Source: Bacilli bacterium
Lineage (GTDB): Bacteria > Bacillota_I > Bacilli_A > RF39 > UBA660
NCBI GenBank assembly: GCA_028698535.1
Contig: JAQVDA010000006.1
Coordinates: 1-19,185 of the forward strand
Reading direction: 5' to 3'
DNA: 19,185 bases
This document shows, one piece after another, positions 4,151-18,964 of the stretch. The notes beneath the pieces are model-generated. The model did not search any database. It had not been told where the DNA came from and saw nothing but the letters and a program-made list of their open reading frames with translations. Numbering within the stretch: the first letter of the stretch is position 1; every line of letters starts with the position of its first letter. The position numbers and the translations under genes are program-made.

Positions 4151-4226
4151 GGTTCCGTAGTGTAGTGGTTAACACGTCTGCCTGTCACGCAGAAGATCGC
4201 GGGTTCAATTCCCGTCGGAACCGCCA
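4151..4226 (+). tRNA. tRNA-Asp (GTC)
   Basis: A 76-nt cloverleaf: acceptor GGTTCCG pairs with CGGAACC, discriminator G, encoded CCA. The anticodon stem TCTGC/GCAGA encloses the loop CTGTCAC, anticodon GTC. The T-arm contains GGTTCAATTC. It is the first of four tRNAs in one transcript, three bases before tRNA-Phe. Confidence 0.97.
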
Positions 4227-4229
4227 AGA

Positions 4230-4305
4230 GGCTTCGTAGCTCAGTCGGTAGAGCAAAGGACTGAAAATCCTTGTGTCGGCGGTTCGATTCCGTCCGAAGC
4301 CACCA
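4230..4305 (+). tRNA. tRNA-Phe (GAA)
   Basis: Acceptor GGCTTCG pairs with CGAAGCC, discriminator A, encoded CCA. Anticodon stem AAGGA/TCCTT with loop CTGAAAA gives GAA. It is followed by a 46-bp AT-rich spacer before tRNA-Arg. Confidence 0.97.
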
Positions 4306-4351
4306 TTCTTATATAAATGCATATAATATAATATCAAATAATGTATATAAT

Positions 4352-4428
4352 GCGCCCGTAGCTCAATTGGATAGAGCGTTTGACTACGGATCAAAAGGTT
4401 ATGGGTTCGACTCCTATCGGGCGCGCCA
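4352..4428 (+). tRNA. tRNA-Arg (ACG)
   Basis: 77 nt. Acceptor GCGCCCG pairs with CGGGCGC, discriminator G, encoded CCA. Anticodon stem TTTGA/TCAAA with loop CTACGGA gives ACG; A34 would be expected to be deaminated to inosine by TadA to read CGN codons. Confidence 0.96.
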
Positions 4429-4431
4429 TTA

Positions 4432-4508
4432 CGGGAAGTAGCACAACTTGGCAGTGCACCTGGTTTGGGACCAGGGGGTTGCAGGTTCAAATCCTGTCTT
4501 CCCGACCA
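4432..4508 (+). tRNA. tRNA-Pro (TGG), integration target
   Basis: 77 nt. Acceptor CGGGAAG pairs with CTTCCCG, discriminator A, encoded CCA. Anticodon stem CCTGG/CCAGG with loop TTTGGGA gives TGG. The 3' end from the T-loop to one base past the CCA (4486-4509) is repeated, with two mismatches, at 10387-10410. The tRNA remains complete, because the element restored its 3' end on integration. Confidence 0.97.
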
Positions 4509-4509
4509 T
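4486..4509 (+). repeat. Left attachment site (attL) in the tRNA-Pro 3' end
   Basis: 24 bp covering the T-loop, the acceptor 3' strand and CCA-T of tRNA-Pro. It matches 10387-10410 at 22 of 24 positions in the same orientation, which is the classic footprint of a tyrosine-integrase element in a tRNA gene. Integrase and excisionase-like sequences lie between the two copies. Confidence 0.85.
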
Positions 4510-4518
4510 AAGTAAATT

Positions 4519-4543
4519 AACCCTTGTAATACAAGGGTTTTTT
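4519..4543 (+). terminator. Terminator after the tRNA operon
   Basis: A 9-bp stem AACCCTTGT/ACAAGGGTT with an AAT loop, followed by a T tract. It begins 10 bp after attL, so it belongs to the inserted element's left end and would now terminate the tRNA transcript and keep it from running into the island. Confidence 0.85.
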
Positions 4544-4559
4544 AATGTCAAAATGAAAA

Positions 4560-4576
4560 TGACTCCAGTTTGACTC
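4560..4576 (+). repeat. Left candidate integrase arm-site pair
   Basis: Two TGACTC boxes start at 4560 and 4571, spaced 11 bp. The same arrangement with the same spacing and orientation occurs at the other end of the element (10283 and 10294), each time just inside the attachment repeat. This is the layout expected for arm-type binding sites of an integrase N-terminal domain. The function is inferred. Confidence 0.5.
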
Positions 4577-4604
4577 TAGGATGCAGAATTTTGCCGAAAT
4601 ATAT

Positions 4605-4633
4605 TTGCAAAAGTTATTGAATGGTGTTATAGT
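4605..4633 (+). promoter_or_regulatory. Promoter of the RloC-like ATPase gene
   Basis: TTGCAA (4605-4610), 17-bp spacer, TATAGT (4628-4633) with TG one base upstream (extended -10). The predicted transcript start is near 4640, immediately before a strong hairpin. Confidence 0.55.
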
Positions 4634-4643
4634 TAAATTGTGA

Positions 4644-4675
4644 AGCAGTACAAAGAAATTTGTGCTGCTGTTTTT
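4644..4675 (+). terminator. Hairpin with T-tract in the leader of the RloC-like gene
   Basis: An 11-bp stem (AGCAGTACAAA with TTTGTGCTGCT, one U-G pair), GAAA loop, then GTTTTT. It has the form of an intrinsic terminator, but it lies between a promoter and its gene. It may block read-through from the tRNA operon, act as a 5' mRNA stem, or attenuate the ATPase gene. Confidence 0.6.
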
Positions 4676-4693
4676 ATTTAAGGATGTGAGATT

Positions 4694-5245
4694 ATGTTTG
4701 ATAGTAAAGTTTTAAATGATAATTTAAAATACTTAAAATTTGATTCAGATTTTAATATCAATCTTGAAGAGGATTCGACTGTTTATTTTGGTTACAATGG
4801 AATAGGTAAAACCAGTATTTATAATTACATTGTCAATAGTGATTTTTCAAATAGAATAGATTACTTTGATGTTGATAGAATGAAGGAAGATTTTATAAAA
4901 ATAAAGGGTAGTATAGTAATAGCAGCTAAAGTTGCAGAAATTGAAAATTTACAAAATCACCTTAAAATAATTCAACAAGATTTATCAATCGATTCACAGT
5001 TTAAACAAGCTGGCATTAATGCAACAGTTGCTAAACAAATAGATATCTTATTTGAAGAGATTCAATCATCAAAACAAATAGATAGTTTTACATTGAGTAA
5101 GGAAAGATTAAATGAAATAAACCAAAATATTCCATCAGATTATATCAATTGTACTGTAAAAAACTATAAAAGGATAAAAGGAGTGAGTAATGTAGAAGAA
5201 GAAATAAACAATCTAAAAAGTGTATATTTAAAAAACGCTAGATAA
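4694..5245 (+). CDS. PrrC/RloC-like AAA_13-type ATPase, N-terminal fragment
   Basis: 183 residues forming the front of an SMC/ABC-type ATPase. FGYNGIGKTSIYNY (32-45) is the Walker A loop in the setting used by AAA_13, PrrC and RloC proteins. It is followed by helices with coiled-coil character. The frame ends at TAA 5243-5245. The rest of the protein continues in the +1 frame from codons that would read TLDNLLKIVDEETDECPVCG. Removing one A from the six-A run at 5230-5235 would fuse both parts into one protein of about 633 aa. So this is half of a broken gene, a recoded gene, or a homopolymer sequence error. It is the first gene inside the left end of the tRNA-Pro island. Similar proteins act as phage-triggered defence nucleases. 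Confidence 0.75.
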   Translation: MFDSKVLNDNLKYLKFDSDFNINLEEDSTVYFGYNGIGKTSIYNYIVNSDFSNRIDYFDVDRMKEDFIKIKGSIVIAAKVAEIENLQNHLKIIQQDLSIDSQFKQAGINATVAKQIDILFEEIQSSKQIDSFTLSKERLNEINQNIPSDYINCTVKNYKRIKGVSNVEEEINNLKSVYLKNAR

Positions 5246-5246
5246 T

Positions 5247-6596
5247 TTGTTAAAAATTGTTGATGAAGAAACTGATGAATGCCCAGTATGTGGGACTACC
5301 GGTAAAAAAATTTTGGCAATTATAACTACCAAAATGGAAAAACTCTCAGAAATTAAAGATAATCTATTTGCTGGATTTAATTTTGATAAGACTAATAAAA
5401 GGCACGCGGAGATTTTAAATAATATAGTTAAGACTGTTAAATCAATGGATAATAAAGAAATTTTGGATTATTTTTTATGTAATGGTAATCAGGATAACCG
5501 TAAATTGTTTGAAAAAGCATATAAAGAAATTTCTAAACTAACTAATAAAATTAAAAAATTATTAAGTGTAAAGGAAGAACAATATAAAGTCTTAAAAGCT
5601 GAAGAGACTTTGATTAAAGGTTATATAAACAAAAAATTTGATTTTAAAGAAATTATTTTTGATGATGAAAACCATCAAATTGAGTTTATTCCGAAAAAGG
5701 GAAGGAAAATAGATAGTTATAGTACGGGTGAAATTAACTTACTTTTAATTATTGTTAAGTTATACGGGTTTAGAATTAATAATAAAGATATTTTAGTTAT
5801 TGATGATCCGATAAGTAGTTTTGATATGACGAACCAATATAAAATAATGTATGAAATAGCATCCCTGACAAAAGAAAATAAAGTCCATGTTTTTACACAC
5901 AATATTGAAACAATTAATATATTAAATTCTCAACTAAAGTGGTTATTCAATTTAAAATATTTTGATGTTTATAAGGGCGTGCGATACATAAAGAAAATAA
6001 GTACAAGTGATTATGGTATTTTAAACATCATAAAAAAATACGACAAAGATAAATACTTGTTGCTCTTAGTATCAAGGGAATTGGAAGACAAAAATTATAA
6101 AGGACACAAGGTTTTTCATTATGATAGTCCCTTTACCTTTAGGTTTAAAGTAGGTTCAGATTATGTTGATTTAACAAATGAGTATTTTGTTGAAATGATA
6201 GATTCTTTTGATGCTAGTGATTATATTGAAAAAAATTTTGAAGAAATGATTTATATAAAAATTTTATTAATTATTGGTATACGGGTTTGGATTGAGAAGA
6301 AATTCTATGAAGCGTTTAAGGATAATAAAGATATTCTGTGTGAATTAACTAAAAAGGAAACTTTTGGAGCAAAGATTGATTATTTATATCCTAAAGGGAA
6401 AACTCCTAAAATAAATTGTTATCCTGAAGTTGATAGGACTAAATTAATGCAAATGAAAGTGATGTTAAATCAAAACGGTCATTATTATGATCAAATACAA
6501 CCTTTTAATTTTGCAGCTAATGTTTCAATTGATGATTTGGATTATGAAATTTGTATTATCAAAAAAATGTTTGAGTATAAAAAAGAAAGCGCATAA
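5247..6596 (+). CDS. PrrC/RloC-like ATPase, C-terminal fragment with candidate anticodon-nuclease domain
   Basis: 449 residues continuing the preceding fragment in another frame; the TTG start is only nominal. Residues 12-15 (CPVC) resemble the zinc-hook of RloC-type proteins. The ABC signature is YSTGEIN (158-164), Walker B is ILVIDDP (182-188), and the switch His is in FTHN (216-219). After the ATPase, the C-terminal part holds R346-V-W-I-E350 and, later, NQNGH412. This Arg-x3-Glu plus downstream His resembles the catalytic triad described for the tRNA anticodon nucleases PrrC (Arg320, Glu324, His356) and RloC. The E-to-H distance here is about 62 residues, against 32 in PrrC, so the nuclease call is an inference. 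The stop lies 6 bp from the convergent integrase remnant. If active, it would cleave tRNA when sensing DNA damage or phage. Confidence 0.7.
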   Translation: MLKIVDEETDECPVCGTTGKKILAIITTKMEKLSEIKDNLFAGFNFDKTNKRHAEILNNIVKTVKSMDNKEILDYFLCNGNQDNRKLFEKAYKEISKLTNKIKKLLSVKEEQYKVLKAEETLIKGYINKKFDFKEIIFDDENHQIEFIPKKGRKIDSYSTGEINLLLIIVKLYGFRINNKDILVIDDPISSFDMTNQYKIMYEIASLTKENKVHVFTHNIETINILNSQLKWLFNLKYFDVYKGVRYIKKISTSDYGILNIIKKYDKDKYLLLLVSRELEDKNYKGHKVFHYDSPFTFRFKVGSDYVDLTNEYFVEMIDSFDASDYIEKNFEEMIYIKILLIIGIRVWIEKKFYEAFKDNKDILCELTKKETFGAKIDYLYPKGKTPKINCYPEVDRTKLMQMKVMLNQNGHYYDQIQPFNFAANVSIDDLDYEICIIKKMFEYKKESA

Positions 6597-6602
6597 CACT
6601 TT

Positions 6603-6935
6603 TTATATTTCATCCAATTTATCCGCTAACTTCTTTTGTGCATCATCATAAAGGTGTCCATAGGTGTTTAAAGTAATAGTAATATCAGAATGACCTAATC
6701 GCTTTTTAATAGTTAGGGATCTCGTCCTAGATTTATTAATAATGCTACATGTGAATGTCTTAAGTTATGTAATCTAATATCCTTTGAACCTGCCATTCTT
6801 TGATAATATTTAAAATTTCTTCTAAGAGTTTCCTTTGGTTGGATTGTCAACACTTTTTCTTTTGTTAGATAATTGATCAGATCCTAAAGATACATCTACT
6901 TTATATGTACCATTATGCATTTTTTTAATAGGCAT
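6603..6935 (-). pseudogene. Tyrosine recombinase (integrase) remnant
   Basis: The gene start is intact: AGGAGG, then ATG at 6933-6935, then MPIKKMHNGTYKVDVSLGSD, a typical AP2-like arm-DNA-binding start. The frame is then lost, and the next recognisable part is already the C-terminal catalytic end: LRRNFKYYQRMAGSKDIRLHNLRHSHVALLI (box with the second catalytic Arg) followed, after another frame change at 6721-6726, by LTIKKRLGHSDITITLNTYGHL with the catalytic His and Tyr. Some 250 central residues of a normal integrase of roughly 380 aa are missing. The protein cannot be functional, so the island cannot move by its own enzyme. It stays oriented toward the tRNA end, as expected for the element's own integrase. 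Confidence 0.88.
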
Positions 6936-7034
6936 TAACACCATCCTCCTTCTTTTGTGATTTGTTTTGGTTAAATAAAAACATCTCGTTATCTTTAATA
7001 TCTAATTATTGGTTTATATCAAGAAGATTAAATA

Positions 7035-7214
7035 TTATTGAATATTTAATCTATAAAATAAATAACTGCTGGGTATTTTACCGTTAACTGTCAAATAACC
7101 TTTTTCTTTTAATTCATAATCTAATACTTTAATAATTTCGTAGGCTTTACTCTTTTTACATCTTAATATTTTCATGACATCGTTGCAGTTAAAAACTTTT
7201 TGATTTTCGTTCAT
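7035..7214 (-). CDS. Small excisionase-like DNA-binding protein
   Basis: A 59-aa basic protein, not obvious without reading the minus strand. The ATG (7212-7214) follows a strong AGGAGGT site. Its pattern, FNCNDVMKILRCKKSKAYEII then ELKEKGYLTVNGKIPSSYLFYRL, resembles the small excisionase/MerR-type winged-helix proteins found beside integrases in Firmicutes phages and conjugative elements. It is upstream of and codirectional with the broken integrase, as xis usually is with int, and divergent from the XRE repressor. The 142-bp divergent gap carries repeated palindromes, so its transcription is probably under the repressor's control. Assignment as excisionase is by pattern and position. Confidence 0.7.
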   Translation of the reverse strand: MNENQKVFNCNDVMKILRCKKSKAYEIIKVLDYELKEKGYLTVNGKIPSSYLFYRLNIQ

Positions 7215-7238
7215 AGTAATACCTCCTTTTAAATTATA

Positions 7239-7313
7239 GACAATCTTATTTGCCTATAATCACAATAACACGGACAAATTAATTTGCAATATAAAAGACA
7301 AAATTAATTGTCT
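7239..7313. promoter_or_regulatory. Three operator-like palindromes in the divergent control region
   Basis: Three related sites: 7239-7254 (GACAA..TTTGCC, imperfect), 7275-7286 (CAAATTAATTTG, a perfect palindrome), and 7296-7313 (AGACAA-6-TTGTCT). The third overlaps the -35 of the XRE gene promoter. Spacing and symmetry suit binding by the HTH repressor encoded next door, controlling both directions. This is inference. Confidence 0.6.
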
Positions 7314-7336
7314 TTTTTTGCAATATGTTTTATAAT
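7308..7336 (+). promoter_or_regulatory. Promoter of the XRE/restriction-modification operon
   Basis: TTGTCT (7308-7313), exactly 17 bp, TATAAT (7331-7336). The -35 is the right arm of a palindrome, so a bound repressor would block it (autoregulation). Confidence 0.75.
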
Positions 7337-7356
7337 GTATATGGAGGTAATAGGGT

Positions 7357-7698
7357 ATGGATAAATTAGCTTCAAATTTGAAAAAAATGCGTGAACTAAA
7401 AGGTGTTAGTCAGTATAAACTCGCTGAAGAGTTAAATATTAAAAGATCAGCATATGGTAATTATGAAACAGGGATGTCATATCCTGAATTTTATACTCTT
7501 GAAAAAATAGCTGACTATTACAAAATAGATGTTAGAGATTTATTAGGATTAGCTCCTGATTTTGAAAAAGGTTTGGATATTGATAAAGAAGCTAAAGAAT
7601 TAATGGAAAATATTAAGGAATATTATTATAAGAAGTATAGAGAAATACCAAGTAAGAAAATCCTAATAAAAATAATAGATTTTATTAAAAAAATTTAA
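7357..7698 (+). CDS. XRE-family transcriptional regulator
   Basis: 113 residues. The N-terminal two-thirds is a Cro/C1-type helix-turn-helix (about residues 4-60): LKKMRELKGVSQYKLAEELN, then RSAYGNYETGMSYPEFYTLEKIADYY, then DVRDLLG. The C-terminal 45 residues are helical and lysine-rich, with no peptidase motif, so it is not a self-cleaving C1. Start ATG follows GGAGGT. It heads an operon with the restriction enzyme (15 bp gap to the next frame) and the methyltransferase, the position of a restriction-modification controller protein. Its length and the divergent excisionase-like gene also fit an element immunity repressor. It may do both jobs. Confidence 0.9.
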   Translation: MDKLASNLKKMRELKGVSQYKLAEELNIKRSAYGNYETGMSYPEFYTLEKIADYYKIDVRDLLGLAPDFEKGLDIDKEAKELMENIKEYYYKKYREIPSKKILIKIIDFIKKI

Positions 7699-7713
7699 AT
7701 ATAGGAGGTAGTT

Positions 7714-7947
7714 ATGAATAATAAGTTGGAAGAAAATATTAAATTATCTATTGAAGAAGAAAAAAAGCTTACACATTATATACGTGATGGACGCAATAAA
7801 TACATAACAAATGCAAAAGAAACCGTTGAACTTGTATGTATGAAGAATTCAGAATTAATAAAAGAATATTTGAAAAATCAAAACATATCACAATTAATTA
7901 TGATATTGAGACAAGAAGTATATGATGTTTTTTGGAGCAAGAAATAA
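7714..7947 (+). CDS. Probable N-terminal part of the restriction endonuclease
   Basis: 77 residues (EENIKLSIEEEKKLTHYIRD..., mostly helical) behind an excellent AGGAGG site. It overlaps the following frame by 16 bp. That following frame would begin at a TTG with no ribosome binding site and shows a recognisable endonuclease. One extra T in the six-T run at 7928-7933 would join both into a protein of about 300 aa, close to the length of Ecl18kI/SsoII-type enzymes (about 305 aa). I therefore read it as the enzyme's first quarter, split off by a frameshift. The alternative is a separate small protein of unknown function. Confidence 0.6.
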   Translation: MNNKLEENIKLSIEEEKKLTHYIRDGRNKYITNAKETVELVCMKNSELIKEYLKNQNISQLIMILRQEVYDVFWSKK

Positions 7948-8609
7948 GATTTAATGAAATTATATTAAAGCAAATTGGTTTAGAATTTGATTATCCAAAA
8001 GAAATATTAAGTGAAATAGTAAATAATCTCGAAAAGGATTTTTCTAAAGAATTAAATATAACTGAATTTAGAAATAGGATAAATGAAGAATTTAGTACAT
8101 ATGCTGGTAAAATTTACCCATATATTTATCAATTATCGTTAAGTAATACTCAATCTAGAAGGAGCAGAGCGGGTAGTACTTTTGAAAGTATAATTTATAC
8201 CCTATATGAATTACTTGGTTATTCATATGATTCGCAAGCTCAAATTGGTAAATTAGCTTTTGAAAAACTAGGATTAGGGAAAGTTGTAGATTCCGTATTG
8301 CCTGGCATCCAAGCTTTTAATGATTATAGAAATAAGACAGTTGTTGGTAGTATGAAAACAACTTTAAGAGAACGTTGGCAAGAAGTAGTAGAAGAAGTAC
8401 AAAGATCTAATTTACCCAATATTTATTTGCTAACTGTTGACGAAGATATAGCTGGTGCTAAAATAAAACAGATGGCAATGCACAATATTATTTTAGTAGT
8501 GTTAAAGAATATTAAAGAAACTAAATTTAGTAAGGATCATAATGTGATATCTTTTGAATATTATTTTTATAAAAACATACCGGAAGTATTAAATTATTGG
8601 GATAAGTGA
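7932..8609 (+). CDS. EcoRII/Ecl18kI-like type II restriction endonuclease, main part
   Basis: 225 residues with the marks of the EcoRII-C/Ecl18kI/SsoII group. Seen: RRSRAGSTFE (76-85), D120 in VVDSVLPG, then SMKTTLRERW with K142 and R146-E147-R148, then E155. The distances D-22-K-13-E equal those of the Ecl18kI active site (Asp160, Lys182, Glu195). The RER triplet sits where Ecl18kI has Arg186-Glu187-Arg188, which read the CC/GG part of its site. This predicts cutting at a CC(N or W)GG-like sequence. It ends 11 bp before the methyltransferase, which protects the same site. The start is uncertain, since the intact gene probably began at 7714. If the frameshift is real, the enzyme is likely dead or made only in a subpopulation. 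Confidence 0.8.
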   Translation: MEQEIRFNEIILKQIGLEFDYPKEILSEIVNNLEKDFSKELNITEFRNRINEEFSTYAGKIYPYIYQLSLSNTQSRRSRAGSTFESIIYTLYELLGYSYDSQAQIGKLAFEKLGLGKVVDSVLPGIQAFNDYRNKTVVGSMKTTLRERWQEVVEEVQRSNLPNIYLLTVDEDIAGAKIKQMAMHNIILVVLKNIKETKFSKDHNVISFEYYFYKNIPEVLNYWDK

Positions 8610-8620
8610 GGTGAAAATTA

Positions 8621-9532
8621 ATGGCAGTAAAATTTATTGATTTATTTGCGGGAATAGGTGGAATTAGAATTCCTTTTGAAGAATTAGGCTATGAATGTGT
8701 CTTTAGTTCCGAAATAGATAAATTTGCTGTTGAAACATATAAAGCAAATTTTAACGACACACCATACGGTGATATAAAAACAATAAAACCAAGAGATATT
8801 CCTAAACATGATTTGTTATTAGCGGGATTTCCTTGTCAGCCTTTTTCTCAAGCTGGATTAAAAAAAGGACTTGAAGATGAGAGGGGAACATTTATTTTTG
8901 ATATAATAAAGATTGTCAAAGAGCATAAACCTAAAGTTGTTTTTTTAGAAAATGTGAAAAGATTTTATACAAGCAATAATAATTTAATTTATATGATGGT
9001 AAAAACTGAATTTGAAAAGATGGGGTATAATTTCTTTTTTCAAATATATAATTCAAAAGACTTTGGTATCCCACAAAACCGAGAGAGAGTATATATGGTT
9101 GCTATTAGAGATAAGAGAAGGAAATTTAACTTTCCAAAACCAAGCTATATAGTTACTCGTGTTGGACAAATTTTAGATAAAAATGTAAACGAAAAATATA
9201 CTATATCAGATAAACTATGGGCTGGGCACCAACGAAGGAAAAAAGAGCATATGTCAAAAGGCAATGGGTTTGGGTACTCTTTATTTGATCATAAATCACC
9301 TTATACTAACACAATATCAGCAAGATATTATAAGGATGGATCAGAAATATTAATAAATCAAAAAGATAAAAATCCACGAAAATTAACACCACGTGAAGCA
9401 GCTAGATTACAAGGGTTTCCAGAAAGCTTTAAAATTGTTGTTAATGACGTGCAAGCATATAAGCAGTTTGGTAATAGTGTATCAGTACCTGTAATTAGAG
9501 CGATAGCAAAAGAGATTGATAATATAATGTGA
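8621..9532 (+). CDS. DNA (cytosine-5) methyltransferase
   Basis: 303 residues, complete, with all main motifs in order: I FIDLFAGIGG (5-14), IV GFPCQPFSQAG with catalytic Cys72, VI FLENV, VIII QNRERVY, IX RKLTPREAARLQGFP, X QFGNSVSVPV. The target-recognition region includes ISARYYKDGSEILI, a segment I associate with Dcm/SsoII/Ecl18kI-type enzymes that methylate within CCNGG or CCWGG. That agrees with the neighbouring endonuclease. It transfers a methyl group from SAM to cytosine in DNA. GAGGTG precedes the ATG. It is the one clearly undamaged catalytic gene of the restriction-modification operon, and may now act as a solitary methylase. Confidence 0.95.
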   Translation: MAVKFIDLFAGIGGIRIPFEELGYECVFSSEIDKFAVETYKANFNDTPYGDIKTIKPRDIPKHDLLLAGFPCQPFSQAGLKKGLEDERGTFIFDIIKIVKEHKPKVVFLENVKRFYTSNNNLIYMMVKTEFEKMGYNFFFQIYNSKDFGIPQNRERVYMVAIRDKRRKFNFPKPSYIVTRVGQILDKNVNEKYTISDKLWAGHQRRKKEHMSKGNGFGYSLFDHKSPYTNTISARYYKDGSEILINQKDKNPRKLTPREAARLQGFPESFKIVVNDVQAYKQFGNSVSVPVIRAIAKEIDNIM

Positions 9533-9576
9533 TTATTTAGAGGGATATTATGATTGATTTACGTTAATTTTTTATT

Positions 9577-9906
9577 ATGAATATTAGCGAAGATGAGTAT
9601 CACTATAAATACTATTATAATTTAATTAATAGCACTTGTAATATAAAATTTTTTGATAATCAAGATGTAATTGAAAAACTCAAAGAACTAAGAAAGCCGC
9701 CAGATGATAAAGCCGCTAAAGATTGTGAACTCTTTTTATTTATGTGCTATTTTTTATATAGTAAAGGATATCTAATAGAAGAGTTTCCAACTGCATTAAG
9801 TCGTCCAAAATCATTGCTTGATTTTTCGTATAATCAAATACGAGCTTATAGTCAAAAAAAAGAAAAATATATGCTAAGGTTGAATGGCCCCAAAGAAAAG
9901 AATTAA
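9577..9906 (+). CDS. Unrecognised protein, N-terminal fragment (broken gene)
   Basis: 109 residues, acidic then hydrophobic (LFLFMCYFLYSKGYL, 50-64). I do not recognise the family. Two defects are visible. First, the only good start is an ATG at 9550 behind AGAGGG, in the same frame, but an in-frame TAA follows five codons later (9565-9567); the ATG at 9577 has no ribosome binding site. Second, the frame fails after an eight-A run (9854-9861). The -1 frame continues without a stop as KVEWPQRKELIDSLNFIKQD and onward into the protein ending at 10259. The original gene was probably 9550-10259, about 235 aa. It is the last gene of the restriction-modification cassette. Confidence 0.45.
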   Translation: MNISEDEYHYKYYYNLINSTCNIKFFDNQDVIEKLKELRKPPDDKAAKDCELFLFMCYFLYSKGYLIEEFPTALSRPKSLLDFSYNQIRAYSQKKEKYMLRLNGPKEKN

Positions 9907-10007
9907 TAGATTCATTAAATTTTATCAAGCAGGATAAATATCATTTAAACGTTGAAGTAAATAAAAGAATTAAGTCAATTTCTACAAGAGATGCTACTTT
10001 TGAAAAA

Positions 10008-10259
10008 ATGTCTACAGATGAAAAGCTACAAGAATTATGCAATTTAATTGAGAATATGTTAAAGAAAAACGAAAAATTCATAAAATTAGATTACAAAAAT
10101 CTTTTTATTGGATTTGTAACAGAAGAAGATATTATGAAATATAGGAAAATTACACATTGTTTTAGGCATGCTACTAATGAAGCGATGAAAGAAAGAAAAA
10201 AATATTCTGAAGAGCAAAATATTTTTTTGATAAAATATGGTATTAATATAGCAGAATAA
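10008..10259 (+). CDS. Unrecognised protein, C-terminal fragment (same broken gene)
   Basis: 83 residues (MSTDEKLQELCNLIENMLKK...), helical and charged. The reading frame is open well upstream of this ATG, back past 9861, so the ATG is probably internal. The upstream codons (NKRIKSISTRDATFEKM) connect it to the fragment ending at 9906 through a single indel in an eight-A run. No family recognised. Its place beside a restriction-modification system and an ATPase nuclease inside a mobile island suggests a defence or accessory role, by association only. Confidence 0.45.
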   Translation: MSTDEKLQELCNLIENMLKKNEKFIKLDYKNLFIGFVTEEDIMKYRKITHCFRHATNEAMKERKKYSEEQNIFLIKYGINIAE

Positions 10260-10282
10260 ATTATTTTAGTTTGTATTAATCT

Positions 10283-10299
10283 TGACTCCAGAATGACTC
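10283..10299 (+). repeat. Right candidate integrase arm-site pair
   Basis: TGACTC boxes at 10283 and 10294, 11 bp apart, matching the left pair at 4560/4571 in sequence, spacing and orientation. The shared core is TGACTCCAG, three bases, TGACTC. Confidence 0.5.
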
Positions 10300-10386
10300 C
10301 ACAATAAATAAAAAGAGTGGATTTTATGGGAATTATGAAAAAACAACCCTTATTTAATAAGGAAAAAACAAATAAGTATAGTTAAA

Positions 10387-10410
10387 TTCAAATCTTGTCT
10401 TTCCGACCAT
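10387..10410 (+). repeat. Right attachment site (attR)
   Basis: A relic of a tRNA-Pro 3' end (T-loop, acceptor strand, CCA-T) with no tRNA 5' part in front. It differs from attL at two C-to-T positions. These would unpair the acceptor and T stems, showing that this copy no longer serves a tRNA and has drifted since integration. Confidence 0.85.
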
Positions 10411-10422
10411 GATGTAAATAAG

Positions 10423-10445
10423 TTCTTATTTAATAAGGATTTTTT
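10423..10445 (+). terminator. Terminator right of attR (probable original tRNA-operon terminator)
   Basis: A 7-bp stem TTCTTAT/ATAAGGA (one G-U) with a TTA loop and a T tract, 12 bp after attR. Before the island arrived this would have followed tRNA-Pro directly. Confidence 0.65.
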
Positions 10446-10560
10446 GTTTTCTTGTTTTATCCTCATTTCTTGGGGTAAGATGAGAATAAACATTTAAAGT
10501 TATAATCATATTATCAAAATCTACCTTTTACTTATAACGATTGAATCAGTTACACTAAAC

Positions 10561-10590
10561 TAGACAGTTTTCATATAGACATAGTATAAT
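10561..10590 (+). promoter_or_regulatory. Promoter of the kinase/PHP operon
   Basis: TAGACA (10561-10566), 18-bp spacer, consensus TATAAT (10585-10590), 47 bp before the kinase start codon. Confidence 0.55.
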
Positions 10591-10637
10591 TAAAATAAAA
10601 AAAGGATAAAAAAATAAAAAGGGAAGGAGAATTATGT

Positions 10638-11522
10638 ATGAGCACTCCAAAATGGCGTGAACCCCTTATTGATCCACATACTATTTCTTTTAATAATGAT
10701 TTATTATTAGAAGAGATAATAGGTTATCCTCATGCGTGGAATGATGTTTTTGAATGCCACGGGAAAAAAGACGGCGAGAACATTGATTTCTATTTAAAAA
10801 TTCAAAGAGATGAAAAAGGTAATATAAAAAATGAAGCGCTTATTTTACCTTTAATTAAAAATTATAATTTACCGATACCAGAGCTTTTAGATGTAGGCAA
10901 AAAAGGTGATTTTTATTATATCGTTATAAGTTCATTAAATGGTCAGAGGTTATCTACTATTTTGGAAGGTTTTGAAGATAAAAAGAAAGAAAGTATGAAA
11001 TATATGAAATCTTTAGGGAAAATGCTTTCATATATACATAGTTTGGAAGTTAGTTCGCCAAAAGCTAAGTTAAGAAAAATTAACAATATACCTATAGTTG
11101 ATGATTTAAGTAAGTATCCTGAAATAAAACCAATTTTGGAATGGTTAAATTCTAATATGCCCGCTTTTAAGTATAATACATTTATTCATGGCGATTTTCA
11201 TTATGCTAATGTTTTATGGAGTGAGTATCAAATAAGTGGTGTTCTTGATTGGGAATATTCGGGACAGGGTTTAAAAGAACAAGATATTGCGTGGTCGTTA
11301 ATATTAAGACCATCTCAAAAATTTATGGATAGTAAGCAAGAGGTTGATTTGTTTCTTGAAGGTTATAGAGAAACGGGATTTTATGACGAGAAAAAGTTAA
11401 GATGGTGTTTAATTAATGGCTATGTTCATTTTTATATAATGAATATTGCTAAAAATGATGAGTATTGTAATAAAATTATTAAGATAATTTATGAAATCCT
11501 ATGCTATAATTTTAATGGGTGA
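10638..11522 (+). CDS. APH/choline-kinase-fold phosphotransferase
   Basis: 294 residues with the APH fold (PF01636). The ATP-binding N-lobe ends in the hinge-like YYIVISSLNGQRLS. The Brenner box is HGDFHYANVLW (184-194; catalytic Asp186, Asn191), and the metal-binding motif is GVLDWEYSG (Asp204). Such enzymes phosphorylate hydroxyls of small molecules: aminoglycosides, macrolides, choline, homoserine or sugars. The sequence does not decide which, so calling it a resistance enzyme would be unsafe. The ATG at 10638 is favoured over one at 10634, which opens a frame of a few codons. Its TGA stop is 5 bp before the next gene's ATG, indicating translational coupling with the PHP phosphoesterase, which may act on the phosphorylated product or a related metabolite. 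Confidence 0.85.
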   Translation: MSTPKWREPLIDPHTISFNNDLLLEEIIGYPHAWNDVFECHGKKDGENIDFYLKIQRDEKGNIKNEALILPLIKNYNLPIPELLDVGKKGDFYYIVISSLNGQRLSTILEGFEDKKKESMKYMKSLGKMLSYIHSLEVSSPKAKLRKINNIPIVDDLSKYPEIKPILEWLNSNMPAFKYNTFIHGDFHYANVLWSEYQISGVLDWEYSGQGLKEQDIAWSLILRPSQKFMDSKQEVDLFLEGYRETGFYDEKKLRWCLINGYVHFYIMNIAKNDEYCNKIIKIIYEILCYNFNG

Positions 11523-11527
11523 TATAA

Positions 11528-11791
11528 ATGATAGATTTACACATACACTCTAAATGTTCGTTAGAGGGGAAAAAAGATATAAATGATATATTGAATCTTT
11601 GCTCAGAATCTGGTGTAAAGTACATATCTATTACTGATCATAATACAGTAAGAGCGTATTATAACTTAGATCAAGCCAAGAACAATTTTAAGGGAACTAT
11701 ATTATATGGAATAGAAGCCGATGCTATAGTCAATAATAAGACTTTTGATTTTCTTTGTTATGGTTTCAATTTAGATATAATAAATAAATGA
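11528..11791 (+). CDS. PHP-domain phosphoesterase, N-terminal part (before an in-frame TGA)
   Basis: 87 residues opening with IDLHIHSKCS (metal ligands His5, His7), then ISITDHNT (Asp37, His38) and YGIEADA, all standard for PHP metal-dependent phosphoesterases of the YciV/TrpH type. The frame stops at TGA 11789-11791 and then runs on in the same frame, with no indel, through VEKQYQTIDVRQKKIF into the second half. The site thus looks like a tryptophan codon TGG changed to TGA. Other genes here use TGA as a real stop and TGG for Trp, so a nonsense mutation or base error is more likely than a different code. Cytosolic, probably acting on phosphorylated nucleotides or sugars. Confidence 0.8.
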   Translation: MIDLHIHSKCSLEGKKDINDILNLCSESGVKYISITDHNTVRAYYNLDQAKNNFKGTILYGIEADAIVNNKTFDFLCYGFNLDIINK

Positions 11792-11818
11792 GTTGAAAAA
11801 CAGTACCAAACAATTGAC

Positions 11819-12397
11819 GTGCGTCAAAAGAAGATATTTAATGCTTTAATAGAAATAGCAAATAAAAAGGGTATTGCTATAGAAAACTTGAATACTTATA
11901 ACCCAAGTAATGAATTTGCCCATCAAGCAATATTTAGAATGATGATGGAAAGCGAAGGAACTAAAAAATATTTAGAAAAACAAAATATAAATAGTGTTAG
12001 TGATTTTTATAGACGGAGCACAATTGATAATAGTTTTGATTTTTATTTAGATATGAGTATAGTATGGCCTAAATTAAAAGATTTGTATAAAATTATTAAC
12101 GAGAATAGGGGCCAGGTTTTTTTAGCTCATCCATATCATTATGGAAATAATATCAAAGAGATATTAGAAATCTGTAAACCTTATATTGATGGAATAGAAA
12201 TATATAATTTTGATACAAGTAAAGAGCAATTAGAAAAAGTATGTAATTATGCGAGAGATAATGACTTATTATTATCCGTTGGAAATGATTATCATGGTAA
12301 AGACACGCACCATGTATTAGGAGTAAATATTAATCCTAAAATTGAAAAAGAGATTATTGATTGGATTGAAAAATCAAAAAATAAAATTGTTGTTTAA
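11819..12397 (+). CDS. PHP-domain phosphoesterase, C-terminal part
   Basis: 192 residues continuing the preceding gene in the same frame; the GTG start is nominal and has no clear ribosome binding site. It supplies the remaining metal ligands: FLAHPYHYG (about residues 99-107), DGIEIYN, and SVGNDYHGKD near the C-terminus. The ligands of the trinuclear centre are therefore split between both parts, and neither half alone should be active. Read through, the protein would be 289 aa, a normal length for single-domain PHP enzymes. Coupled to the APH-like kinase upstream; no terminator is seen between them. Confidence 0.8.
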   Translation: MRQKKIFNALIEIANKKGIAIENLNTYNPSNEFAHQAIFRMMMESEGTKKYLEKQNINSVSDFYRRSTIDNSFDFYLDMSIVWPKLKDLYKIINENRGQVFLAHPYHYGNNIKEILEICKPYIDGIEIYNFDTSKEQLEKVCNYARDNDLLLSVGNDYHGKDTHHVLGVNINPKIEKEIIDWIEKSKNKIVV

Positions 12398-16200: not shown

Positions 16201-16328
16201 AAAAACAACATGATTATGGCCTTTGCCAGATATAATTACCTGATGATAAGAACGTAAAATAATGTTCATTATAATCTAAACGGGTGTTGTTTTTGAATTA
16301 TACATGCTATAATGTACGAGGTGGTTTA

Positions 16329-17207
16329 ATGAATAACGCAAAGGATGTAAGAAGAGCAAAGGACTCACAAAATTTTTTGCATAATAAAGCTTTGGTTGAA
16401 AAACTATTAGATATCAGTAATATTACTGGTAATGATTTTGTAATTGAAATAGGACCCGGGAAGGGTATAATAACGGAGGCTTTAGATAAAAAGTGTAAAC
16501 AAGTAATAGCCGTGGAATATGATGAACAGTTATATCGCAATTTATTAACTAAAAAATGGCGTAATACCCGCATTATTAATGCGGATTTTCTTAGTTACGA
16601 ATTTACTAAAGGAATTAAAGTAAAAATATTTTCTAACATACCATTTAATATGACTACCGATATATTTCTTAAAGTATTGAAAAACTTTGAAGTTATTGAA
16701 GATTTTTATGTAATAATGCAAAAGGAAGCGGCAGAAAGGTTTATAGGGACCCCATACAAATTAGAATCTTTAAAATCCTTGTTATTTAAACCAATATTTT
16801 CGGGCAATATTATACATGAATTTATTAAAACTGATTTTTCACCAATCCCAAATGTTAGGATTGTTCTAGCTCATTTCCAAAAGAAAGAATATTGCGATAT
16901 AAAGAAGGCCCCGATCATTATGTATTGGGATATGTTGGTGTATCTTTATAATCATAAGGGTTCAACATTTAAAGAAAAAACCAAGGATATTTTTTCTTAT
17001 CAACAACAAAAAAGAGTAGCAAATGCCATTAAACTTGATATGGTTTCTCCAATTTCATTATGGACATTTGAACAATGGATGGGTATTTTTAATTGTTATA
17101 AACAATTTGTACCTAGCCATAAGCAACAACAAGTTAATGGGGCTTTTAAAAAACAAGATATTAGTCAAAAGAAACTTAATAAAGTTCATCGTTCAAGAAA
17201 TTATTAA
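16329..17207 (+). CDS. Erm-family 23S rRNA (adenine-N6) methyltransferase
   Basis: 292 residues from the ATG at 16329, preferred over a GTG at 16284 because GAGGTGG sits just upstream. Order of motifs: DSQNFLHNK (near 10), SAM motif I VIEIGPGKGIIT, motif IV FSNIPFNMTTDIF (Erm-type NIPF/Y), QKEAAERFIGTPYK, and IKTDFSPIPNVRIVLAHFQKKE. The last two resemble Erm enzymes more than KsgA, which has LGQNFL and NLPY. Erm dimethylates A2058 of 23S rRNA and can block macrolide, lincosamide and streptogramin B binding. About 45 basic C-terminal residues exceed ErmC (244 aa), as in some chromosomal Erm types. No translational-attenuation leader peptide is seen. Confidence 0.85.
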   Translation: MNNAKDVRRAKDSQNFLHNKALVEKLLDISNITGNDFVIEIGPGKGIITEALDKKCKQVIAVEYDEQLYRNLLTKKWRNTRIINADFLSYEFTKGIKVKIFSNIPFNMTTDIFLKVLKNFEVIEDFYVIMQKEAAERFIGTPYKLESLKSLLFKPIFSGNIIHEFIKTDFSPIPNVRIVLAHFQKKEYCDIKKAPIIMYWDMLVYLYNHKGSTFKEKTKDIFSYQQQKRVANAIKLDMVSPISLWTFEQWMGIFNCYKQFVPSHKQQQVNGAFKKQDISQKKLNKVHRSRNY

Positions 17208-17547: not shown

Positions 17548-18048
17548 TTAATAAATCCCGCTAATACCACTTTTTATATATTTTTGGAATATAATGAATA
17601 GTAGAATTATTGGCATGGTTGATAATACTAACGAAAGCATTAATACTGCGTAATTACAAGTCCATATAGTTCCTAAACTATTTAGATATAAGGTATTTGT
17701 GAATTTGTTTGGCGATTGTAAAATTACTACTGGTAATAATAAAGCGCCCCAAGATTCTAAAAATGATAATAAAGCAGAAGTTATAAATACTGCTCTCATA
17801 CAAGGCATATATACTTTATAAAATATTTCAAATTCATTTAAACCATCTATCCGGGCTGCTTTTATTAATTCAATAGGCATTAGGCGAGCATTCTGTTTAA
17901 ATAAATAAATATTAAATGGTAAGGAGAGACAACATATAATAACAGCCGTATATGTATCTATCATACCTATCATTTTAAATATTAAAAACAATTTGATATA
18001 TATTATTTTTGTATTCCATCTTACTATAAATAATATATTCGGAACCAA
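17548..18048 (-). pseudogene. Sugar ABC-transporter permease, C-terminal half only
   Basis: Recognisable permease sequence starts near residue 25 of this frame (KMIGMIDTYTAVIICCLSLPFNIYLF) and runs to the normal C-terminal end. It includes the EAA loop ELIKAARIDGLNEFEIFYKVYMP (60-82), by which MalG/UgpE-type permeases dock onto their ATPase, and the last membrane helices. Full-length family members have about 275 aa, so the first two helices are missing. What precedes it in this frame is the out-of-frame tail of the ATPase gene, so its first residues are not native. It cannot form a normal permease. Confidence 0.8.
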
Positions 18049-18964
18049 TTAATTCAGCATATTTAATACTTACCCTAGTACCTATGTCACTTTTCTTATT
18101 ACATACAATAAAATTTTCTGGTCTAATTCCTAAATTAATAGTTTGAGGTTTACTTATAATGTTTGGTAATTCAATTTCTTGATTAAATATATTAATAAAC
18201 TTTTTGTTATTTTTATAGTTAATATTCAAATTATTAATTATATTCATTTTTGGAGTCCCTAAAAATTGAGCTACAAATTGATTTTGTGGGTTTTCGAAAA
18301 TTTCAATGGGAGTACCTATCTGTTCTATATGGCCATCTTTTAAAACCATGATTTTAGTTGCTAATGATAAAGCTTCGATTTGATCATGTGTAACATATAT
18401 AATAGTAGCATTAAAATCTTTATGCAGTTGCTTTAATTCTTTTCGTAATTGATTTCTTAATACTACATCTAAATTAGATAATGGTTCATCCATTAAGAAT
18501 ATTTTAGGGTTTCTAACAATTGCTCTTCCTATTGCGACTCTTTGTTTTTGCCCACCGGATAATTGTGCTGGCTTTCTATCTAAGAGTTTATCAATCCTTA
18601 ATTTTTCCGCAATTTCAACTACTCTATTCTTAATTTCTTTTTTATTTTCTTTTTTATTTCTAAGAGCAAAGGCTAGATTTTCAAAAACAGTCATATGCGG
18701 ATATAGAGCATAATTTTGAAAAACCATTGCTATATCTCTATCTTTCGGTTCTATATTATTTGATAATACATCATTAATATATATTTCACCAGAATTAATA
18801 TCTTCTAATCCAGCTATTAGGTTAAGAATAGTTGTTTTACCGCTACCAGAAGCACCAATTAAGACAAAGAAGTCATTATTATCAACAGTAAAGGATAAAT
18901 TATCAATCACTAATTTTTTATTATCATATGTTTTACAAATGTTTTTAAGATTAACCAAGGCCAA
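17975..18964 (-). CDS. Sugar-type ABC transporter ATPase (MsmK/UgpC-like), truncated
   Basis: 329 residues. Walker A GASGSGKT (37-44), Q-loop QNYALYPHMTV, signature LSGGQKQRVAIGRA (135-148), Walker B IFLMDE (155-160), D-loop SNLD, H-loop His193. The regulatory OB-fold starts normally (NLGIRPENF, then AELIGSEYIIYSK) but ends after about 20 more residues, about 35 short of the usual 360-370. The final dozen residues (YKNNIYQIVFNI) may be read from foreign sequence. The start is TTG behind AAGGAGGG. This family energises uptake of oligosaccharides or glycerol phosphate. The nucleotide-binding core is whole, so it might still serve other permeases, as MsmX does. Confidence 0.88.
   Translation of the reverse strand: MALVNLKNICKTYDNKKLVIDNLSFTVDNNDFFVLIGASGSGKTTILNLIAGLEDINSGEIYINDVLSNNIEPKDRDIAMVFQNYALYPHMTVFENLAFALRNKKENKKEIKNRVVEIAEKLRIDKLLDRKPAQLSGGQKQRVAIGRAIVRNPKIFLMDEPLSNLDVVLRNQLRKELKQLHKDFNATIIYVTHDQIEALSLATKIMVLKDGHIEQIGTPIEIFENPQNQFVAQFLGTPKMNIINNLNINYKNNKKFINIFNQEIELPNIISKPQTINLGIRPENFIVCNKKSDIGTRVSIKYAELIGSEYIIYSKMEYKNNIYQIVFNI

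What the first reader, a model, noticed from the sequence alone, without database searches (positions are those of the whole stretch)
4486..10410. A compact defence island in tRNA-Pro pairing an anticodon-nuclease candidate with a restriction-modification system
Seen: a 24-bp direct repeat (22/24) of the tRNA-Pro 3' end at both borders, integrase and excisionase-like sequences, an RloC/PrrC-like ATPase, a type II endonuclease, a C5 methyltransferase and an unknown gene in 5.9 kb. Known: PrrC guards type IC restriction systems and is released when phage attacks them. Inference: here a similar ATPase nuclease may back up a type II EcoRII-like system, a pairing I do not know as a described unit.
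Basis: partly seen in the sequence, partly recalled or inferred. Interest (0 to 1): 0.7.

Follow-up and report, generated by a model that had tools for sequence, protein, structure and literature searches.

The report
Decayed defence island in tRNA-Pro
A small, partly broken mobile DNA island sits in a transfer-RNA gene of an uncultured bacterium and carries a restriction-modification system next to a relative of known infection-triggered RNA-cutting proteins; relatives of that protein often lie beside restriction systems of changing types, which hints at a general back-up defence.

Summary
A 5.9-kb island ends in a 22/24 repeat of the tRNA-Pro 3' end (4486-4509, 10387-10410). A relative of another genus has the same tRNA cluster without the island, and its post-tRNA sequence matches the window from 10411: an empty site.

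Three island genes are frame-broken at homopolymer runs and the integrase is a remnant: in this assembly it is a decayed element, not a working cassette.

The restriction system is Ecl18kI/SsoII-like (CCNGG expected). The ATPase belongs to a clade of ~630-aa zinc-hook ABC proteins with an invariant R-x3-E...N-x3-H pattern like RloC/PrrC; nuclease function is inferred, since fold and profile tests of that domain were weak or negative.

The pairing recurs without being fixed. 7 of 15 loci of this clade have a DNA methyltransferase within 8 kb (0.51 expected), with different systems; 3 of the 15 genomes show no methyltransferase of the four families searched. Other AAA_13 genes do the same (6 of 10). 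PrrC/RloC linkage to R-M systems was published in 2013. In serine-recombinase elements that split an amidase gene, the ATPase and recombinase ends are conserved while the R-M genes between them show no DNA similarity.

The parts
4432..4508 (+). tRNA-Pro (TGG), integration target; last of a tRNA-Asp-Phe-Arg-Pro cluster 4151-4508
   Evidence: ARAGORN; Rfam
4486..4509 (+). left direct repeat (tRNA-Pro 3' end)
   Evidence: 22 of 24 identical to 10387-10410; 200 shuffles reach 17 at most
4518..4543 (+). terminator-like hairpin plus T run brought by the island behind the tRNA
   Evidence: read directly
4560..4576 (+). paired TGACTC motif, 11 bp apart, left end (possible integrase arm site)
   Evidence: the function is inference
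4694..5245 (+). ABC ATPase, N-terminal piece (Walker A GYNGIGKT), frame broken at its end
   Evidence: aligns to the N-terminus of intact relatives
5247..6596 (+). ABC ATPase, rest: zinc hook CPVC, signature, Walker B, H-loop and C-terminal candidate RNase domain (R-x3-E ... N-x3-H)
6600..6960 (-). tyrosine integrase remnant in several frames, internal part missing
   Evidence: assignment by motif, my reading
7035..7214 (-). 59-aa excisionase-like ORF
   Evidence: no Pfam match
7357..7698 (+). Cro/CI-type HTH regulator directly upstream of the endonuclease gene
   Evidence: PF01381 4.6e-14
7714..7947 (+). endonuclease N-terminal piece, frame-broken
7932..8609 (+). Ecl18kI-like endonuclease, main piece
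   Evidence: PF09019 1.6e-16; R.Ecl18kI 2fqz 1.7e-32
8621..9532 (+). C5-cytosine methyltransferase, intact
   Evidence: PF00145 7.5e-104; 58% identical to a Vagococcus plasmid methyltransferase and 57% to that of 4.2-kb plasmids with an Ecl18kI-type endonuclease
9577..9906 (+). unknown gene, first piece, frame-broken
9852..10259 (+). unknown gene, second piece (open frame; 9894-10259 used as query)
   Evidence: 44% over 120 aa to hypothetical proteins on plasmids of Bacilli
10283..10299 (+). paired TGACTC motif, right end
10387..10410 (+). right direct repeat; native post-tRNA sequence starts at 10411

Best explanation
This is a decayed integrative element of ~5.9 kb that entered the 3' end of tRNA-Pro, probably by its own tyrosine integrase, and carries two defence modules: an Ecl18kI/SsoII-type restriction-modification system (expected CCNGG) and a RloC/PrrC-like ABC-ATPase with a C-terminal candidate RNase domain.
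Most likely mode of action of intact relatives: the R-M system cuts unmodified incoming DNA. The zinc-hook ATPase, silent in the uninfected cell, is released when restriction fails or DNA ends or stress appear; its R/E/H domain then cuts tRNA or other RNA to stop translation.
Shown: the island borders, the empty site in a relative, gene families, recurrent ATPase/R-M neighbourhood, invariant candidate catalytic residues.
Inferred: RNA cutting, silencing and trigger.
In this assembly the ATPase, endonuclease and third gene are frame-broken and the integrase is a remnant, so only the methyltransferase (and the HTH) is expected to work. The database holds an intact endonuclease of the same lineage from another contig.
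Against: Foldseek found no PDB match with E below 0.001 for the C-terminal domain. Its profile does not match a RloC-like C-terminal profile from five proteins (probability 0.15%). The Glu-His spacing is 61 residues against 36-52 in RloC. Other AAA_13 genes lie as often near methyltransferases (6 of 10), OLD-like ATPases in 2 of 9; Fisher P for this clade against OLD-like is 0.39, so general defence-island clustering is not excluded. 7 of 15 loci have no methyltransferase hit within 10 kb, though one of these has a C5-methyltransferase fragment and some contigs are short. In 3 of the 15 genomes (G731, G736, G737; loci L034, L039, L040) none of the four methyltransferase families was found at all, so the ATPase does not strictly need such a partner, unless those drafts miss it.
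Confidence: 0.6

Rival explanations
1. Passive cargo: the ATPase and the R-M system are independent defence genes gathered in one mobile island, with no functional tie.
For: The R-M partner differs between loci; 3 of 15 ATPase genomes show no methyltransferase of the four families; OLD-like ATPases also lie near methyltransferases in 2 of 9 cases; in L030/L032 the ATPase is part of the element's conserved block, not of the R-M cassette.
Against: 7 of 15 against 0.51 expected for this clade and 6 of 10 against 0.45 for other AAA_13 genes, more often than the OLD-like control, though not significantly; PrrC-EcoPrrI shows a real coupling in one case (PMC3710099, PMC3506569, passages read).
Confidence: 0.37
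2. The frame breaks are sequencing or assembly errors at homopolymers and the island is intact in the cell.
For: All three breaks fall where a run of 6-8 identical bases lies; an intact 298-aa endonuclease of the same lineage exists.
Against: The broken ATPase frame recurs with an amino-acid difference and the broken endonuclease with two; no intact ATPase of this lineage was among the 120 best of 270 hits; long flanking genes (HtpG 621 aa, arylsulfotransferase 651 aa) are open; the integrase is truncated, which no base-calling error explains.
Confidence: 0.15
3. The homopolymer breaks are reversible switches (phase variation or slippage) that turn the toxic genes off, not permanent decay.
For: Breaks at three runs; intact and broken endonuclease alleles coexist in the lineage.
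Against: Runs of 6 or more are common here (31 in the island) and shorter than typical switching tracts (recalled); the integrase is plainly decaying.
Confidence: 0.15
4. The ATPase is not an RNase but a DNA-end-processing SMC/Rad50-like effector.
For: Profile hits in the PDB are Rad50 and ABC proteins, fold hits are SMC/Rad50 heads and ABC ATPases.
Against: Those hits are the ABC part; the C-terminal domain has an invariant R-x3-E, N-x3-H set in the order and place of RloC, and its best, though weak, structural rows are HEPN toxins.
Confidence: 0.2

Closest known systems
RloC (ABC-ATPase anticodon nuclease with zinc hook; PMC2610378, passages read)
   Same: ABC motifs split by an insert with a CX2C zinc hook; C-terminal R-x3-E ... 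H order; N four residues before H, as in 3 of 5 RloC-like proteins of related genomes
   Different: Shorter (629-645 aa in 12 complete relatives, one of 668, against 658-897); Glu-His spacing 61 against 36-52; C-terminal profiles do not match; the window piece is below the Pfam AAA_13 cut-off. In that paper 8 of 72 RloC genes lay in type I or III R-M loci; here 7 of 15 lie near methyltransferases, mostly of type II-like systems.
PrrC with EcoPrrI (type IC R-M guard)
   Same: ABC-ATPase plus C-terminal nuclease candidate beside R-M genes; proposed guard logic
   Different: PrrC lacks the zinc-hook insert, has 341-416 aa and is linked to type I genes (PMC2610378 passages); here the partner is type II. 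Type I neighbours were seen at L037 and, at 9.6 kb, at L033
ABC-HEPN / R-M neighbourhoods of PMC3710099 (2013, passages read)
   Same: That paper reports PrrC/RloC-type genes often in R-M operons and with Fic/Doc; L035 shows ATPase, AbiEi, Fic, methyltransferase, AlwI
   Different: The passages read do not describe this short clade, the Ecl18kI partner, or a conserved ATPase end with exchanged R-M genes; the whole text was not read
Ecl18kI / SsoII type II R-M (CCNGG)
   Same: Endonuclease aligned to R.Ecl18kI at 1.7e-32; methyltransferase 57% identical to that of 4.2-kb plasmids, of which pKPN2 carries such an endonuclease beside it; the best plasmid hit, 58% in Vagococcus lutrae, lies near a LlaMI-family endonuclease gene
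   Different: The methyltransferase lacks the 71-residue N-terminal regulatory region of M.SsoII (abstract start of PMC3978073, listing); a separate HTH gene lies upstream. R and M genes are tandem here, divergent on pKPN2

Membership tests
RloC/PrrC anticodon nucleases | ABC ATPase motifs (Walker A, signature, Walker B, H-loop) | tested here: met
   residues of signature and Walker B invariant, Walker A and H-loop at least 90%; Walker A of the window lies in the first piece 4694-5245
RloC | zinc-hook CX2C in an insert that splits the ATPase | tested here: met
   CPVC in 5247-6596; C-P-x-C invariant in 35 sequences
RloC | C-proximal R-x3-E-x36-52-H triad | tested here: inconclusive
   R, E, H invariant and in order, spacing 61 in the window
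RloC | C-terminal domain homologous to RloC by profile | tested here: inconclusive
   hhalign of 14 against 5 sequences not significant; of the full-length profiles only the ABC part aligns, probability 99.5%
HEPN RNases | HEPN fold of the C-terminal domain | tested here: inconclusive
RloC/PrrC anticodon nucleases | tRNA anticodon cleavage | not testable with these tools
   needs biochemistry
PrrC | embedded in type IC hsd genes | tested here: not met
   partner in the window is a type II system
Ecl18kI/SsoII R-M | EcoRII-C / CCGG-family endonuclease next to a C5 methyltransferase | tested here: met
Ecl18kI/SsoII R-M | CCNGG specificity | not testable with these tools
   inferred from similarity only
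Ecl18kI/SsoII R-M | N-terminal regulatory region of the methyltransferase | tested here: not met
   the 303-aa methyltransferase begins at the catalytic domain (compare abstract start of PMC3978073)
tRNA-integrating element with tyrosine integrase | direct repeat of the tRNA 3' end at both borders and an empty site | tested here: met
tRNA-integrating element with tyrosine integrase | intact integrase | tested here: not met
   remnant only

The most novel reading that the evidence does not exclude
The ATPase clade is a general R-M back-up that is not tied to one R-M type: mobile elements keep the ATPase at one end and exchange the whole R-M system beside it, so it would have to sense a common consequence of restriction failure or DNA breakage rather than one partner protein. 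L030 and L032 (ATPases 93% identical, recombinases 72%) share a left block with the ATPase and a right block with HTH and recombinase, while the R-M genes between show no DNA similarity.
Probability: 0.25. Interest if true: 0.68.

Novelty: new variant of a known kind. Interest (0 to 1): 0.42.

Why it matters
If an RNA-cutting ATPase stays in place while very different restriction systems are swapped beside it, then the coupling of restriction to cell shutdown does not need one dedicated partner as in PrrC-EcoPrrI. That would make a long-standing question (fortuitous island clustering or functional coupling) testable with natural swaps. The window itself is a decayed example and mainly documents the element, its target site and the frame-break pattern.

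Tried and rejected
Rejected: a fixed ATPase/Ecl18kI unit. Apart from the window's own genome, 3 of the other 385 family genomes hold any endonuclease match, at 26-30% identity, and tblastn of the endonuclease piece found nothing at E 0.01 in the 14 other ATPase loci; the HTH and the third gene's second piece found nothing there either.

Led nowhere: viral contigs with the ATPase piece, the ATPase alignment and the endonuclease gave no relative; the methyltransferase gave 3 loci, not pursued. Intact ATPase P0011 against plasmids and phages: no match. Endonuclease against phages: none. ATPase piece and profile against the PDB: ABC and Rad50 hits at best, plus chance-level rows. C-terminal profile against the PDB: chance-level hits only. 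Foldseek on the C-terminal model: none significant. PADLOC gave no named, established system for the ATPase: hits were to the candidate family PDC-S06 (best 2e-12) and weaker ones to LmuB, Mad, PtuA and a type I ATPase model. The integrase-remnant peptides found no relative among the neighbour proteins.

Rows dropped before counts: G708, a short fragment with stops, left out of the 15 loci. In one search, 25 of 386 genomes pass E 1e-3, but only the 6 below 1e-40 (own included) are counted as this clade; four of these five others are the same contigs as L030, L032, L035 and L038. From 38 AAA_15 rows I kept 9 genes with frames of about 425-703 aa as OLD-like controls, leaving out frames under 400 aa, SbcC-sized frames of about 980-1000 aa, and one 629-aa row below the cut-off; that choice is mine. 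Contig numbers of some ATPase genomes were taken from accession numbers; one search checked the loci themselves with 14 methyltransferase queries and added one fragment in L041.

Bias: all ATPase loci were found by the ATPase, so whether the serine-recombinase elements always carry it is unknown.
Full report
The thing itself. The window is contig 77 of a 670-kb, 80%-complete draft genome. A tRNA-Asp-Phe-Arg-Pro cluster ends at 4508. The 24 bases 4486-4509 recur at 10387-10410 with 22 identities; the next best place on the + strand has 15, and 200 Markov shuffles gave at most 17. Two TGACTC motifs 11 bp apart lie just inside each end; these four are the only ones on the + strand, and three lie on the minus strand outside the island. 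I read them as possible integrase arm sites (inference).

Empty site. I searched 60 genomes (own included) with the left-flank gene (PF04018; search). The best match outside the own genome, G026 of another genus, carries the gene followed by the same tRNA-Asp-Phe-Arg-Pro cluster (the only one of 12 flank loci scanned that does) and no island directly behind it. The 60 bases after its tRNA-Pro match the window best at 10411 (score 30) and poorly at the left border (14); the joined flanks are identical to it in 104 of 113 columns. No second species of the window's own genus was among the relatives, so a same-species empty site was not seen.

State of the genes. The ATPase, the endonuclease and the unknown third gene each change frame, and each overlap of the two frames contains a homopolymer run (5230-5235, 7928-7933, 9854-9861). 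The broken ATPase frame is also in the protein database with one amino-acid difference, and the endonuclease both intact (298 aa, identical over the shared part) and broken with two differences (229 aa). The integrase is a remnant. The methyltransferase and the HTH gene are open.

R-M system. The endonuclease piece matches EcoRII-C (1.6e-16), with R.Ecl18kI far ahead of PspGI and EcoRII in the PDB (1.7e-32, 3.2e-5, 1.9e-3). The methyltransferase is 58% identical to one on a Vagococcus lutrae plasmid and 57% to the one on 4.2-kb enterobacterial plasmids; on pKPN2, the one looked at, it lies beside such an endonuclease. CCNGG is therefore expected, not shown. M.SsoII has a regulatory N-terminus of 71 residues (abstract start of PMC3978073); here it is absent and a separate HTH gene precedes the endonuclease gene.

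Neighbourhood test. Fifteen loci of the clade (window, twelve from GTDB, and two more) were compared with methyltransferases of four Pfam families in 24 genomes. Seven of 15 lie within 8 kb of one, against 0.51 expected from the genome fraction near methyltransferases; none of 200,000 simulations reached that. Ten other AAA_13 genes over the Pfam cut-off gave 6 of 10 (0.45 expected); nine OLD-like ATPases gave 2 of 9 (0.37 expected). The clade differs from chance but not significantly from the OLD-like control (P 0.39) or from other AAA_13 genes (P 0.69). Against the pairing: 7 of 15 have no hit within 10 kb, and G731, G736 and G737 have none of the four families anywhere in the draft. Partners: Ecl18kI-like (window), C5 plus D12 methyltransferases with an HNH gene (L030), two C5 methyltransferases with McrB/McrC-like genes (L031; LlaJI-like, name recalled), C5 with a MutH-type endonuclease (L032; Sau3AI-like, recalled), D12 with AlwI endonuclease (L035, L105), and type I hsd genes (L037). 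L033 has a DpnII-type endonuclease gene directly upstream and a methyltransferase 9.6 kb away. L041 keeps a C5-methyltransferase fragment next to the ATPase.

Exchange of partners. L030, L031 and L032 are serine-recombinase elements; L031 and L032 have an Amidase_3 N-terminal half on the left, and L030 and L031 the other half with LysM on the right (recombinases). L030 and L032 align over the ATPase side (1214-4340 of L030) and the recombinase side (8267-10784) and, at E 1e-6, nowhere between, where the R-M genes are; L031 and L032 show the same pattern. ATPases of L030 and L032 are 93% identical, recombinases 72%. At protein level the C5 methyltransferases are still distant relatives (23-31% where L030 is compared). 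Because all loci were found through the ATPase, this shows that partners change beside a conserved ATPase, not that elements always keep it.

Comparison with what is known. PMC3710099 (passages read) lists PrrC/RloC-type ABC-HEPN genes as often found in R-M operons and with Fic/Doc genes and proposes multi-pronged defence, while stating that the studied RloC is not linked to an R-M system; PMC3506569 (passages) proposes restriction/suicide coupling; PMC12707154 (passages) reviews PrrC as guard of EcoPrrI; PMC12322248 (passages) lists RloC and PrrC among accessory systems. Literature searches listed no paper that, by title or abstract start, describes this short clade or an ATPase with exchanged R-M partners; most subscription papers and all bioRxiv preprints are outside that library.

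Verdict. The window is a decayed example of a new variant of a known kind.

Noticed in passing
window 10638-11522 (+): APH-family phosphotransferase gene directly right of the island; the NCBIfam resistance models hit stay far below their cut-offs (best 61.5 against 205 bits, APH(3') family), so not assignable as a resistance gene.
   Followed up: partly
window 16284-17207 (+): Erm-like rRNA methyltransferase: best NCBIfam model Erm(42) 1.4e-72 but below its cut-off; broad Erm model 198 against 212 bits. Outside the island.
   Followed up: partly
window 11528-12397 (+): PHP-domain gene interrupted by an in-frame stop region (two ORFs in the same frame): decay also outside the island.
   Followed up: no
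window 17548-18964 (-): UgpC/MalK-like ABC ATPase gene overlapping a permease gene that lacks its N-terminal part: looks like a deletion that joined two transporter genes.
   Followed up: no
L030 1214-10784, L031 758-13250, L032 8565-20719, L035 535-12436, L039 8891-10989: Family of serine-recombinase elements at a LysM amidase gene, with different R-M systems between an ATPase end and a recombinase end (L039 is cut by the contig end; the left border of L035 was not seen).
   Followed up: partly
L123 1235-5402 (Aerococcus urinaeequi plasmid): A relative of the island's unknown third gene lies near a PmeII-type endonuclease and a C5 methyltransferase; the two other plasmid contexts looked at (L122, L124) show no annotated R-M genes.
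   Followed up: partly
L105 1-8702: Recombinase, AlwI endonuclease, D12 methyltransferase, 217-aa unknown and the ATPase in one row: gene order differs from L035, where the ATPase comes first.
   Followed up: partly
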